Below, one piece after another: positions 3,672-6,798 of a stretch of DNA of 11,174 bases. Made by a program: the position numbers and the translations under genes. The DNA lies in contig CAMLSI010000139.1 of the NCBI GenBank assembly GCA_946482585.1, forward strand, positions 1 to 11,174, written 5' to 3'. The first letter of the stretch is position 1. Each line of letters starts with the position of its first letter. This stretch comes from an uncultured Lysobacteraceae bacterium (GTDB lineage: Bacteria; Pseudomonadota; Gammaproteobacteria; Xanthomonadales; Rhodanobacteraceae). A model generated the notes under the pieces. The model was not told the origin of the DNA. It ran no database searches and saw nothing but the letters and a program-made list of their open reading frames with translations.

Positions 3672-3687
3672 TGGCATATGTCTTGCT
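3672..3687 (+). promoter_or_regulatory. Sigma-54 (-24/-12) promoter of the BON gene
   Basis: The sequence TGGCATATGTCTTGCT matches the sigma-54 pattern TGGCAC-G-N4-TTGCW. The GG at 3673-3674 and the GC at 3685-3686 are separated by exactly ten bases, the strict spacing required. Mismatches are only at the last two bases of the -24 element (TA for CG). Transcription should start near 3698, leaving a leader of about 48 bases before the BON start. Such promoters need an AAA+ activator, and one is encoded nearby (5458-6798). Confidence 0.75.
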
Positions 3688-3732
3688 CCCATCGAGCGTC
3701 GCCGACAGCTGGCGGCTTCAGAAGAAATCCAC

Positions 3733-3738
3733 AGGAGA
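3733..3738 (+). promoter_or_regulatory. Shine-Dalgarno site of the BON gene
   Basis: AGGAGA ends seven bases before ATG at 3746. It decides the start against the longer in-frame GTG at 3671, which would lie inside the sigma-54 promoter. Confidence 0.85.
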
Positions 3739-3745
3739 GCAACCC

Positions 3746-4870
3746 ATGCAACGATACGATCGTGAGCGCGAAGCGCGTTCTTTCCGCAGCGGCCGCGACA
3801 ACGAATCGCGCGGTTACGACCCGCGCGGCAACTTCCGCAATGACGAACGCTGGCAGACGCAGGGACCGCAGAACGCGTGGCGCGACGACGACGGCCCGGG
3901 CATGAGCTATGCCGATCAGGGAGAGTGGCGCGACTCGTACACCGGCTATGACGAAGACGAACGCTATCGTTCCGATTTCGCGCAACAGCGCTATGGCCGC
4001 GGTCAGAACGTCGGCTTCGGCCAGGACTACGGCGGTCCGCGCGGCGCCTATGCCTCGCGCCGCGACTACGGCAGTGCGAGCGGACAGTACGGCAGTTCGA
4101 ACGACGAAGGCGGCCGTCCGCTGTACGGCGAGAACTCGCGCGCAGGCTGGTCGAACGAATCCGTGCGTCAGGGTTATTCGAGTCCGCGCACGCCGTACTC
4201 GAACCTGCCGCGCGCGGCATCGCGCAACGTCGGCTACGGTCCGCAGCCCGACTACGGCCGCGATCTCGGCCCGAGCTACGCCCGCAACGAAACGCCGGGC
4301 CGTCACGGCAGCCAGTGGCGCGACTACGACGACAGCGGCCAGGGCTACGTCGGCGGCTACGGCAGCGATCTCGGCTATGGCGCATCGCGCGGCCGCGACA
4401 GCGGCGGCCGCTATGGCGACTTCAATTCGCCCGCACCGCGCGGCGCGTACGACAGCGACGATCGCTATGCGCAAGGCGCCAACTACGGCACCGGCCGCGA
4501 GAGCAGCTATGGCCGCAGCTACGACGAGCTGTCCGGGCCGAATCATCGCGGCCGCGGACCGAAGAACTACATGCGCTCGGACGAACGCATCAAGGAAGAT
4601 CTCAGCGAGCGGCTCTCCGACGATCCGATGATCGACGCGGCCGACATCAACGTCGAAGTGAAGAACGGCATCGTCACCTTGACCGGCAGCGTCGACGCGC
4701 GTCATCTGAAGCATCGCGCCGAGGACCTGGCCGACCACTGCAGCGGCGTCAAGGATGTCGAGAACAAGCTGACGATCCGCAAGCCGGGAACGGGGCAGAA
4801 TCTCGCCGGTTCGCCGGGCGGCGGCAGCACGAGCGCCGGCCGCAGCGACGAGACCGGCAAGAAGCACTGA
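3746..4870 (+). CDS. Low-complexity (YG/RG-rich) protein with C-terminal BON domain
   Basis: A 374-residue protein with no signal peptide or membrane segment, so probably cytoplasmic, unlike the periplasmic BON protein OsmY. Residues 1-270 are low complexity, rich in Gly, Arg, Tyr, Ser and Asp, with twelve YG dipeptides in contexts such as RYGR, DYGS, GYGSD and SYGR; this part should be disordered. A conserved linker GPNHRGRGPKNYMRSDERI leads into a BON domain at about 278-345 (DLSERLSDDPMIDAADINV, NGIVTLTGSV, GVKDVENKLTIRK). A Gly/Ser tail closes the protein (346-374). BON domains bind lipids or partner proteins and are often stress- or osmotically induced. Proteins with this tail and BON unit are widespread in proteobacteria, but their role is not established. 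A sigma-54 promoter precedes the gene, and the sigma-54 activator pair converges on it. Nucleotide repeats such as GGCTACGGC make the region prone to length variation. Confidence 0.9.
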   Translation: MQRYDREREARSFRSGRDNESRGYDPRGNFRNDERWQTQGPQNAWRDDDGPGMSYADQGEWRDSYTGYDEDERYRSDFAQQRYGRGQNVGFGQDYGGPRGAYASRRDYGSASGQYGSSNDEGGRPLYGENSRAGWSNESVRQGYSSPRTPYSNLPRAASRNVGYGPQPDYGRDLGPSYARNETPGRHGSQWRDYDDSGQGYVGGYGSDLGYGASRGRDSGGRYGDFNSPAPRGAYDSDDRYAQGANYGTGRESSYGRSYDELSGPNHRGRGPKNYMRSDERIKEDLSERLSDDPMIDAADINVEVKNGIVTLTGSVDARHLKHRAEDLADHCSGVKDVENKLTIRKPGTGQNLAGSPGGGSTSAGRSDETGKKH

Positions 4871-4877
4871 GTCCGCT

Positions 4878-4912
4878 GCGTCGCGGCCGCGGCGGTTGCG
4901 CGGCCGCGACGC
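4878..4912. terminator. Perfect 14-bp inverted repeat between convergent genes
   Basis: The arms 4878-4891 and 4899-4912 are perfectly complementary (GCGTCGCGGCCGCG pairs with its partner) with a 7-base loop. The repeat lies between the BON stop (4870) and the stop of the kinase-like gene (4922). Its position fits a bidirectional transcription stop, but neither strand has a T-tract after it, so this may be a hairpin-only or Rho-assisted terminator. Confidence 0.55.
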
Positions 4913-4919
4913 GAAGGGC

Positions 4920-5471
4920 TCAGCGATGCCGCAATCGCGCGAGCAGTTCGATGAGCCGGTCGCTTTCGCGGCCGCAACGCTCCGCGAACTCGGCGGCCTC
5001 GCCGGTGCGGCCGCGCTGCAGCAAGGTCTGCAGCACGCCGATCTGCAAGGTGATCGCACCGGCCGTGTTGTTGAGATCGTGCAGGCGCTGCGAGGCGAGC
5101 CAGACGCCGCGCAGCGCGCGCGCCGGCGCCGCATGCACGGCGAGCAGCACCGCGAGCGCGGCGGCGACCTGCTCGACGAACGCGGCGGCGTCATGCCAGC
5201 GCGACGCGGTGCAGTGCACGTCGATGCAGCCGAACTCCGCGTCGCCGTCGCGCAGTGTGACGGTATGCCATTGCGCCGCTTCGACCGGGCGCGTCGCCGC
5301 GCGGCTGACGCTGCCGCCGCTGCCCGTTGCCGTGCAGCGCACGGCGGCGCCGCCGCAGACTGCCCCGATCAGACGTGCGGCACGCCGCAGCGCATGCTGC
5401 GGTTCCGCGAGCGCGCGCGCGCTGCGCAGCGGCGTCAGGCGCAGCCGCGTCAGCCGCTCAGGCGACAGCAT
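4920..5471 (-). CDS. Kinase-less phosphoacceptor (HisKA/DHp-like) protein partnered with the response regulator
   Basis: A 183-residue protein whose ATG (5471) overlaps the 3' end of the response-regulator gene by 14 bp, so the two are almost certainly translationally coupled. The C-terminal third resembles the dimerisation/phosphotransfer helices of a histidine kinase: QRLHDLNNTAGAITLQIGVL with candidate phosphoacceptor His131, then a second helix AAEFAERCGRESDRLIELLARL. Residues about 25-115 look like a small, degenerate GAF-type sensor fold ending in an alanine/leucine-rich helix (weak call). No N, G1 or G2 box of an ATP-binding domain is present. The protein ends at 4922, about 50 bases from the convergent BON gene, so there is no room for one. 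It could be a phosphotransfer protein fed by another kinase, a phosphatase, or a decoy that holds the regulator. No transmembrane segment is convincing; the run AAALAVLLAVHAA is short and probably a packed helix. Function is inference. Confidence 0.8.
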   Translation of the reverse strand: MLSPERLTRLRLTPLRSARALAEPQHALRRAARLIGAVCGGAAVRCTATGSGGSVSRAATRPVEAAQWHTVTLRDGDAEFGCIDVHCTASRWHDAAAFVEQVAAALAVLLAVHAAPARALRGVWLASQRLHDLNNTAGAITLQIGVLQTLLQRGRTGEAAEFAERCGRESDRLIELLARLRHR

Positions 5472-6798
5472 CGTCGCCGTAGCGCGCGAGGTGGTTGTAG
5501 ATCGTCTTGACGCTGACGCCGAGCGCCTCGGCTGCGCGCGCCTTGTCGCCGGAATAGTGCTCCAGGGTGCGCAACAGCATTTCGCGCTGGATCAGGTCGA
5601 GCCGCGTGCCCACCGGAAACACGAGACAGCCGGCCACGTCGGTGCCGTGCGCGCCTTCGTCGCGCAGCGACGGCAGCCGGACCTGGTCGCCGTCGCCGAG
5701 AATGAACGCGCGATGCACGGCATTGCGCAGCTCGCGCACGTTGCCGGGCCAGGAATAATCCGCAGCGCCGCTCCACGCGTCCGCGGCGAAGCGCTTGTCC
5801 GCGCCGTAGCGCTGGTTGAACTGCTGCAGCATCGCTTCGCCGATCAGCGCGATGTCGCCGCCGCGCAGTCGCAGCGGCGGCAGCTGCAGCACGAATTCGC
5901 CGAGCCGGAAGAACAGGTCTTCGCGCAGCTTGCCCGCGGCCATCGCCTCTTCCGCGCGCCGGTTCGTCGCCGCGATCACGCGCACGTCGAGCGCATGTTC
6001 GCTGTCGCCGCCGACACGGATCACACTGCGCGTCTCGAGCACGCGCAGCAGATGCGCCTGCAGCGCGAGCGGCATCTCGGTGATTTCGTCGAGCAGTATG
6101 GTGCCGCCCTGAGCCTGTTCGAAATGGCCGCGGTGCTGCCGCACCGCACCGGTGAAACTGCCGCGCTCGTGACCGAACAGGTGGCTCGCGAGCAGTTCCG
6201 GCGCGACCGCGCCGCAGTTCACGGCGACGAACGGCCCGCTGCGGCCGCTCAGATCGTGGATGGCGCGCGCGGCGAGCTCCTTGCCGGTGCCGCTTTCGCC
6301 GACGAGCAACACGTTCGCATGCGTCGGTGCGACGCGCCGGATCTGCCGGTAGACGGCTTTCATCGGCGGTGAATTGCCGACGAAGTCGCCGCAGTTCTCG
6401 ACCTCGTCGCCGCCGCAGTATTGCGCCGACCAGATCGAGCGGGCCTGCTGCAGCAGCGCATCGAAGCGCGAACGCTCCAGCGGCTTGACGAGGTAGTCGC
6501 TGATCGGCAGCCGCACCGCGCGCGCCGCCGTCGCGATCGACGCATTGCCGGTGACGACCGCGACGGTACCGCGCGATTCGCCGATCTCCTCGACGAGGTC
6601 GAAGCCCGATCCGTCGGGCAGACACAGGTCGACGAGGATCAGGTCGAATCGCCGGCGCTGCGTCGCGACGCGCGCCGCGCCGAGGCTGTGCGCGCCGCAG
6701 GATTCGAAATTGCGCAACTGCGCGAGGGCCGTCGCCGCCTCGACGAAGCCCTCGTCGTCATCGACTACCAGCAGGCTGGGCCGGCTCGGGTGATCCAT
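5458..6798 (-). CDS. Sigma-54-dependent response regulator (REC-AAA+-Fis HTH, NtrC family)
   Basis: A 446-residue transcription activator with the standard NtrC architecture. The receiver domain (about 8-120) has the acidic patch D13-D14-D15, predicted phosphorylation site Asp57 (LILVDLCLP), Thr83 and Lys105 (DYLVKP). The AAA+ domain (about 138-370) has Walker A GESGTGKE, the sigma-54 contact loop GSFTGA (Ser in place of the usual first Ala), Walker B GTILLDE and the arginine-rich AATNRR and EDLFFRL segments. The C-terminal Fis-type helix-turn-helix is AAEALGVSVKTIYNHLARY. The ATG at 6798 places the first beta strand (SLLVVDDD) at the usual position; upstream only a weak ribosome site (ACGGCGG) is seen. 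It is followed, with overlap, by the kinase-less phosphoacceptor gene and faces the BON gene, which carries a sigma-54 promoter and is therefore a likely target (inference). No complete cognate kinase is visible in the window. Confidence 0.95.
   Translation of the reverse strand: MDHPSRPSLLVVDDDEGFVEAATALAQLRNFESCGAHSLGAARVATQRRRFDLILVDLCLPDGSGFDLVEEIGESRGTVAVVTGNASIATAARAVRLPISDYLVKPLERSRFDALLQQARSIWSAQYCGGDEVENCGDFVGNSPPMKAVYRQIRRVAPTHANVLLVGESGTGKELAARAIHDLSGRSGPFVAVNCGAVAPELLASHLFGHERGSFTGAVRQHRGHFEQAQGGTILLDEITEMPLALQAHLLRVLETRSVIRVGGDSEHALDVRVIAATNRRAEEAMAAGKLREDLFFRLGEFVLQLPPLRLRGGDIALIGEAMLQQFNQRYGADKRFAADAWSGAADYSWPGNVRELRNAVHRAFILGDGDQVRLPSLRDEGAHGTDVAGCLVFPVGTRLDLIQREMLLRTLEHYSGDKARAAEALGVSVKTIYNHLARYGDDAVA

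What the first reader, a model, noticed from the sequence alone, without database searches (positions are those of the whole stretch)
3672..6798. Compact sigma-54 module: promoter on a BON/low-complexity gene facing a sigma-54 activator and a kinase-less phosphoacceptor
The BON gene has a -24/-12 element with exact GG-N10-GC spacing, a rare and specific signal. The only transcription factor in the window is an NtrC-type activator encoded convergently next to it, overlapping a protein with a HisKA-like helix but no ATPase. Seen directly: the promoter match, domain motifs and gene overlap. Known: sigma-54 promoters need an AAA+ activator such as this. Inferred: the regulator drives the BON gene and the small protein tunes the regulator.
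Basis: partly seen in the sequence, partly recalled or inferred. Interest (0 to 1): 0.72.

Follow-up and report, generated by a model that had tools for sequence, protein, structure and literature searches.

The report
Sigma-54 stress-gene switch with kinase-less phosphoacceptor
A bacterial gene switch (a sigma-54 promoter on a stress-type gene, its likely activator, and a small phosphate-acceptor-like protein with no kinase part of its own) recurs in relatives of this organism and may be an undescribed way of controlling stress genes.

Summary
The window (Tahibacter-like, order Lysobacterales, formerly Xanthomonadales) has a perfect -24/-12 site, TGGCATATGTCTTGCT (3672-3687), 58 bases before the ATG of a Gly/Tyr/Arg-rich BON gene. 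A convergent NtrC-type response regulator overlaps by 14 bp a 183-aa protein modelled as GAF-like half plus two-helix DHp, without ATPase domain. It is not a lone module. In 57 loci (regulators at E<=1e-100 from 54 of 398 genomes of the order, plus the window) exact sigma-54 sites number 27, against 0 for the same pattern with changed spacing or reversed. Sites with <=1 mismatch precede 20 of 39 BON genes against 67 of 763 other genes. A palindrome, sometimes doubled about 20 bp apart, is enriched upstream: a candidate enhancer. An H-box-only ORF directly follows the regulator in 31 of 56 loci; none of these has a receiver-less kinase within 500 bp, against 8 of the other 25. Best reading: the regulator drives BON and other stress-type genes from sigma-54 promoters, and the small protein passes phosphate to it. 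The comparative case for regulator-to-promoter is good but untested; the small protein's role is inferred. My six paper searches listed nothing I recognised as describing it.

The parts
3551..3563 (+). candidate enhancer (UAS) palindrome TGAAATTGCTACA, 121 bp before the -24 element
   Evidence: 15-base block TGAAATTGCTACAGC invariant in window, L136, L137; matches KGWAN5TWCM, which is enriched before sigma-54 sites
3570..3582 (+). second, imperfect UAS copy TGCAGATCTTTCC; L136 and L137 have GGAAGGANTTTCC at about the same place
3672..3687 (+). sigma-54 -24/-12 promoter TGGCATATGTCTTGCT
   Evidence: exact match; exact sites at the same place in L136, L137, L139
3698..3698 (+). inferred transcription start (12 bases after the GC of the -12 element)
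   Evidence: inference from the usual sigma-54 geometry (recalled)
3746..4870 (+). BON gene, 374 aa: Gly/Arg/Ser/Tyr/Asp-rich N-terminal 265 residues, no signal peptide obvious by eye; BON domain residues 278-345 (nt 4577-4780)
4920..5471 (-). 183-aa kinase-less protein: GAF-like fold residues 11-116 (nt 5124-5441), DHp hairpin residues 118-182 (nt 4926-5120), His131 codon 5079-5081 in HDLNN
5458..5471 (-). 14-bp overlap of the small protein gene with the regulator gene
5458..6798 (-). NtrC-type regulator, 446 aa: receiver (nt 6457-6771), AAA+ sigma-54 activation domain with GSFTGA (nt 5887-6381), Fis HTH (nt 5479-5601)

Best explanation
The regulator at 5458-6798 is a phosphorylation-controlled enhancer-binding protein of the NtrC kind. 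When phosphorylated it binds 13-bp palindromes (KGWAN5TWCM, sometimes paired about 20 bp apart) upstream of -24/-12 promoters and opens sigma-54 polymerase on stress-type genes, here the BON gene. The gene overlapping it encodes a minimal DHp phosphoacceptor (in this lineage with a GAF-like sensor half) that lacks an ATP-binding domain. It most likely receives a phosphoryl group from the receiver of an unlinked hybrid kinase and hands it to the regulator (and may drain it back), as ChpT, Spo0B and PhyT do. Shown: anatomy, conservation of promoter and gene order in close relatives, enrichment of sites, recurrence of the small ORF. Inferred: binding of the regulator to the palindrome, direction of phosphate flow, stress function.
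For: Exact promoter kept with the gene in L136, L137, L139. A BON gene lies within 3 kb of the regulator in 34 of 56 loci; 20 of 39 BON genes have a <=1-mismatch site 15-250 bp upstream vs 67 of 763 other genes, Fisher p 8e-11; spacing and reversal controls give 0 exact sites. Palindrome >=8/10 in 42 of 87 site-gene pairs vs 97 of 712 other upstreams (p 1e-12) and about 4.6 in shuffles; KGWAN5TWCM 31 sites in 21 of 87 vs 1.1 in shuffles; of the 8 promoters with more than one copy, 6 have a pair 20-21 bp apart. rpoN over its cut-off in 54 of 54 genomes. DHp-only ORF overlapping or touching the regulator in 31 of 56 loci. Kinases without a receiver within 500 bp of the regulator: 0 of 31 loci with the small ORF vs 8 of 25 without (counted; Fisher p 0.0008). 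In L148, L152, L159, L165 the order is regulator, small ORF, hybrid kinase with a C-terminal receiver and no Hpt match at E <= 0.001.
Against: No kinase was found in the window or in the 15-kb loci of the close relatives L136 and L137, so the donor is unknown. In L141-L144 the His is Asp, which excludes His phosphotransfer there. The residue after the His is acidic in only 9 of 27 His-bearing members (counted). The small protein evolves fast (window vs L136 dN 0.45, dS 0.57). 19 of 39 BON genes lack a <=1-mismatch site. Upstreams of genes without such a site in the same loci also hold more palindromes than shuffles (116 vs 27.8), and the palindrome was found and tested on the same data. The window has one full palindrome and one imperfect copy. 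Trehalose-synthase-type and HlyD-type sigma-54 promoters in relatives lack it, as do BON promoters L184, L194 and L172 (5, 5 and 6 of 10). The loci are related, so p values overstate the evidence.
Confidence: 0.58

Rival explanations
1. The small protein is a phosphatase or sequestering partner (negative regulator) of the activator rather than a phosphate carrier; the activator is phosphorylated directly by a distant kinase or small phosphodonors.
For: Asn at +4 from the His, the position of the phosphatase T/N of HisKA proteins (recalled), is kept in 31 of 31, though the search rule demanded it. His replaced by Asp in L141-L144 while the gene persists with dN/dS about 0.12 (L141 vs L143). PhyT both transfers phosphate and sequesters its regulator (PMC5898713, abstract).
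Against: His kept in 27 of 31. Four operons pair it with a hybrid kinase whose receiver has no Hpt partner in the same protein. The acidic +1 residue usually needed for phosphatase activity (recalled) is lost in 18 of 27.
Confidence: 0.25
2. The sigma-54 promoter is real, but the BON gene answers to another enhancer-binding protein; adjacency to this regulator is incidental.
For: The three genomes searched hold 4, 9 and 4 matches to such regulators at E <= 1e-60. In G331 three BON genes with exact sites lie on other contigs than the best regulator copy, one of them beside a second copy, and these three promoters lack the palindrome.
Against: Recurrent neighbourhood over the order (34 of 56), and a palindrome shared by BON, KGG-type and c30 promoters near the regulator but not by two glutamine synthetase promoters (5 and 6 of 10).
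Confidence: 0.13
3. The small ORF is a decaying remnant of a lost histidine kinase with no present function.
For: Weak HisKA scores; fast evolution in the window lineage; a clade of the regulator tree pairs with full kinases whose DHp resembles the small ORFs.
Against: An open, coding-like ORF overlapping or touching the regulator in 31 of 56 loci, dN below dS in all 10 of 11 pairs with a computable dS; small DHp-only relatives in Lysobacter, Pseudoxanthomonas, Tahibacter and Xanthomonas.
Confidence: 0.04

Closest known systems
PhyT/SdrG/PhyR general stress phosphorelay of Sphingomonas (PMC5898713, abstract and section list seen)
   Same: A protein with a conserved phospho-accepting His hands phosphate from a single-domain receiver to the response regulator of a stress regulon.
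   Different: PhyT is membrane bound and the output goes through the sigma factor EcfG (abstract); here the protein has no ATPase-type domain and the output is a sigma-54 activator. Membrane segments were not tested here.
ChpT (PMC3433190, search listing only) and Spo0B (recalled) phosphotransferases
   Same: Dimeric DHp-type histidine phosphotransferases resembling kinases, between a receiver and a response regulator.
   Different: They keep a degenerate ATPase-like domain (recalled); the forms here end after the second DHp helix and can be as short as 63 aa.
NtrB/NtrC-type two-component sigma-54 systems (recalled)
   Same: Receiver-AAA+-Fis activator and -24/-12 promoters with upstream palindromes.
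   Different: No NtrB-like kinase beside it in the window; a DHp-only ORF instead; the promoters nearby are on BON, KGG and similar genes, not nitrogen genes.
PEP-CTERM-box regulator PrsR (TIGR02915)
   Same: Best NCBIfam match of the regulator (335.5 bits).
   Different: Below the curated cut-off (502.6 bits); a PEP-CTERM locus was not searched for.

Membership tests
sigma-54 promoter | GG-N10-GC within TGGCAYR-N4-TTGCW | tested here: met
   exact
sigma-54 promoter | transcription depends on RpoN | not testable with these tools
   rpoN present in 54 of 54 regulator-bearing genomes; the window's own genome is not held
NtrC-family enhancer-binding response regulator | receiver + Sigma54_activat + Fis HTH + GAFTGA-type loop | tested here: met
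   GSFTGA in 48, GAFTGA in 6, neither in 2 of 56 called regulators
PrsR (TIGR02915) | score over curated cut-off | tested here: not met
   335.5 of 502.6 bits
HisKA DHp domain (PF00512) | score over gathering cut-off | tested here: not met
   window 12 bits; best relative scanned 23.3; cut-off 26.9
HisKA DHp domain (PF00512) | helical hairpin with an H-box His | tested here: met
   models; His131. Foldseek with the 71-aa model gave only general helical hairpins, HK853 among them, best E 0.29, so the fold search itself is not decisive
histidine kinase | HATPase_c domain | tested here: not met
   no match in the small proteins scanned
ChpT/Spo0B-type phosphotransferase | DHp followed by a degenerate ATPase-like domain | tested here: not met
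   the protein ends after the second DHp helix
ChpT/Spo0B-type phosphotransferase | His phosphotransfer between receivers | not testable with these tools
   needs biochemistry
GAF domain (N-terminal half) | GAF fold | tested here: met
general stress regulon | induction by several stresses | not testable with these tools
   gene content only

The most novel reading that the evidence does not exclude
Lysobacterales (Xanthomonadales) run a sigma-54-based general stress response. An NtrC-type activator, fed through a phosphorelay whose carrier is a free-standing DHp hairpin (63-239 aa with or without a sensor half, no ATPase), turns on BON, KGG/LEA-like, DUF4142, DUF2383 and similar protective genes, doing in many of these genomes the job that RpoS or EcfG does elsewhere. 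A bare DHp hairpin as phosphotransfer protein would be a new minimal kind.
Probability: 0.33. Interest if true: 0.82.

Novelty: new variant of a known kind. Interest (0 to 1): 0.62.

Why it matters
It would give a testable stress-control circuit for an order in which 41 of the 54 regulator-bearing genomes show no RpoS-like sigma by my rule, place BON, KGG and DUF4142 proteins of unclear role in one regulon, and provide a natural minimal DHp that separates phosphotransfer from kinase activity. Small DHp-only relatives, mostly called hypothetical, are found in Lysobacter and widely in Xanthomonas.

Tried and rejected
The window's own genome could not be searched. The first contig scan with the regulator returned mostly distant relatives: of 80 loci only L001 held a BON match. 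RpoS replacement as the general explanation was rejected for the window's lineage: G015, G387, G327 and G331 carry an RpoS-like ORF of 337-338 bits, below the cut-off of 378.7 but above RpoD. GTCG-N-CGAC came up in the palindrome search; several copies look like coding sequence of the receiver start (my reading), so it was dropped. (sites before BON genes in four genomes) mis-oriented several loci; I do not use its misses. My gene caller missed the regulator of L112, so that locus is left out of '56'; a small ORF of 77 aa lies there too. L001 has a 179-aa ORF with an H-box about 1.2 kb beyond the regulator and L146 a 173-aa one elsewhere in the locus; neither is counted among the 31. The rule for the small ORF demanded [HD].[LIV][RN]N, so conservation of those letters is partly built in; with the H-form of the rule 0 of 18 loci that I picked from the 80 (L001 included) had one. 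The profile of the small ORFs scores the DHp of full kinases beside the regulator in L130 (8e-9) and L132 (3e-8), but other kinases nearly as well (L113 2.4e-8, L115 5.3e-8), so descent from that kinase is not shown. Trehalose-synthase-type (3) and HlyD-type (4) genes in relatives have exact sigma-54 sites but the palindrome scores at most 7 of 10 there, so they may answer to other activators. Sites in two further genomes front glutamine synthetase and flagellar-looking genes too: the sigma-54 regulon is not stress genes alone. Literature: searches listed no paper that I recognised as describing this regulator or the small protein; one search returned none. I saw passages of PMC3162934, PMC12316311 and PMC8657755 and the abstract of PMC5898713.
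Full report
What is there. The window carries, from left: a CHAT/TPR gene (-, runs off the left end), an EF-hand gene 3082-3384 (-), the BON gene 3746-4870 (+), the small protein 4920-5471 (-), the regulator 5458-6798 (-), an M19 dipeptidase 6970-8142 (-) and an M36 metallopeptidase from 8615 (+, runs off the right end). The nearest named regulators are from Tahibacter (90 and 78% identity), so the organism is Tahibacter-like: Rhodanobacteraceae, Lysobacterales. The -24/-12 element is exact.

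Conservation of the promoter. I found regulators at E <= 1e-100 in 54 of 398 genomes of the order of Lysobacter gilvus (56 places; order name). I fetched loci of about 15 kb (three of 9.8-13 kb) around 55 of them, used L001 for the remaining one, and added the window: 57 loci, 843,009 bases. In the closest relatives L136, L137 (regulator 78 and 77%) and L139 (59%) the convergent BON gene keeps an exact site 56-78 bp before its start. In the three-way alignment (window, L136, L137) the promoter block and a block TGAAATTGCTACAGC further upstream stand out. In G331 the regulator (L138, 61%) has no BON match in its locus, but a BON gene on another contig carries the identical 16-mer TGGCATATGTCTTGCT. 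Other loci have an adjacent BON gene without a <=1-mismatch site (L001, L146, L141-L144).

Enrichment. Over the 57 loci the exact pattern occurs 27 times, and 121 times with at most one mismatch. The same pattern with spacing 8, 9, 11 or 12, or reversed, gives 0 exact and 9-19 with at most one mismatch; Markov shuffles gave 0 exact and 19.5 with one mismatch. A site of <=1 mismatch lies 15-250 bp before 20 of 39 BON genes and 67 of 763 other called genes (p 8e-11). Other clusters: KGG genes 10 of 14, a second BON cluster (within the 39) 5 of 5, an unknown 95-119-aa family 4 of 4. The loci are not independent and the gene calls are my own. Pfam of one representative each: KGG, LEA_5, DUF4142, DUF2383, CBS, SDR, Mn-catalase; some of these clusters, such as CBS (0 of 8), carry no site. 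Genome-wide in four Tahibacter-type genomes the 29 exact sites front 7 BON genes with low-complexity N-termini, 3 trehalose-phosphate-synthase-like genes (Glyco_transf_20 in the 2 scanned), 2 DUF4142 (1 scanned), 4 HlyD-like (1 scanned), 2 small Pro/Gln-rich genes, and others (unscanned ones named by likeness). The same genomes hold 51 BON-domain matches, so most BON domains have no exact site near them.

Candidate enhancer. A search of all gapped palindromes with 4- and 5-base arms upstream of 86 sites put GAAA-N3-TTTC (15 vs 0 in shuffles) and GGAA-N5-TTCC (14 vs 0.2) on top. A 10-letter form matches at >= 8 in 42 of 87 site-gene pairs, 97 of 712 other upstreams, and about 4.6 by shuffling. 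The relaxed form KGWAN5TWCM gives 31 sites in 21 of 87 vs 1.1; control upstreams 116 sites vs 27.8, that is, also raised. Of the 8 promoters with more than one copy, 6 (L111, L136, L137, L159, L160, L163) have a pair 20-21 bp apart. The window keeps one full copy (3551-3563) and an imperfect second (3570-3582). Two glutamine synthetase promoters in other genomes score 5 and 6 of 10 (one of the two scanned by Pfam). Three G331 BON promoters score only 5-6. That this regulator binds the palindrome is inference.

Partners. By HMMs built here, kinases without a receiver lie within 500 bp of the regulator in 8 of 25 loci without the small ORF (L125, L126, L129, L130, L132, L151, L153, L161) and 0 of 31 with it (counted; p 0.0008, not corrected for kinship). 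On the regulator tree the label 'small ORF' needs 3 changes against 'kinase' (22 rows of neither label not counted; several long branches), shuffled mean 6.6. One clade (L125, L129, L130, L132) pairs with a divergent full kinase whose DHp (AHDLRNPLNAISM-type) resembles the small ORFs (8e-9 for L130), though other kinases score nearly as well (2.4e-8 for L113). In L148, L152, L159 and L165 a hybrid kinase with a C-terminal receiver and no Hpt match follows the small ORF. This suggests, without showing it, that the small protein is a kinase-derived DHp now used as carrier between a hybrid kinase's receiver and the regulator.

Sigma factors. rpoN is present in 54 of 54 genomes. An RpoS-like ORF (my rule: >= 300 bits to TIGR02394 and an open frame under 400 aa) is in 13 of 54; only 2 of those pass the curated cut-off. 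The window's relatives are among the 13, so in this lineage the system would work beside an RpoS-like factor, not instead of it.

Judgement. Promoter and gene order: sound. Regulator controls BON: likely (about 0.7). Small protein as phosphate carrier: the likeliest of its possible functions, unproven. The ingredients are known; the combination, above all a free DHp hairpin as the regulator's frequent neighbour, I have not found described in the searches listed.

Noticed in passing
L141-L144, small ORF after the regulator (e.g. L141:6141-6857 -): The H-box His is replaced by Asp (DAINNALN) in four close relatives while the gene is kept.
   Followed up: partly
L001:10534-11070 (+): A 179-aa ORF with an H-box followed by about 100 residues that look by eye like a degenerate ATPase domain; Pfam finds nothing at E <= 1. 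A possible intermediate between kinase and small DHp.
   Followed up: partly
L111, L148, L159, L160: cluster c30, e.g. L111:6229-6585 (-): A 95-119-aa family (the one scanned has no Pfam match) divergent from the regulator, with a sigma-54 site of <=1 mismatch in 4 of 4 and paired palindromes in 3.
   Followed up: no
L157:13709-13999 (-) and cluster c21: KGG-like small proteins, one matching plant seed LEA_5 (E 7.5e-19); 2 of 6 in the cluster have exact sigma-54 sites.
   Followed up: no
L171, L173, L176; L169, L179, L182, L193: Trehalose-phosphate-synthase-type and HlyD-type genes with exact sigma-54 sites in Tahibacter-type genomes, without the palindrome.
   Followed up: partly
L147:8714-9094 (+), cluster c64; L132:5389-5793 (+), cluster c36: Small proteins (c36 a single receiver by Pfam, c64 without match) with sigma-54 sites near the regulator: possible feedback or relay parts.
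   Followed up: no
window 3746-4540: The N-terminal 265 residues of the BON protein are rich in Gly, Arg, Ser, Tyr and Asp with 12 YG pairs, and no signal peptide is obvious by eye, unlike OsmY (recalled as periplasmic).
   Followed up: no
window 3082-3384 (-): An EF-hand protein divergent from the BON gene, kept beside it in L136 and L137.
   Followed up: no
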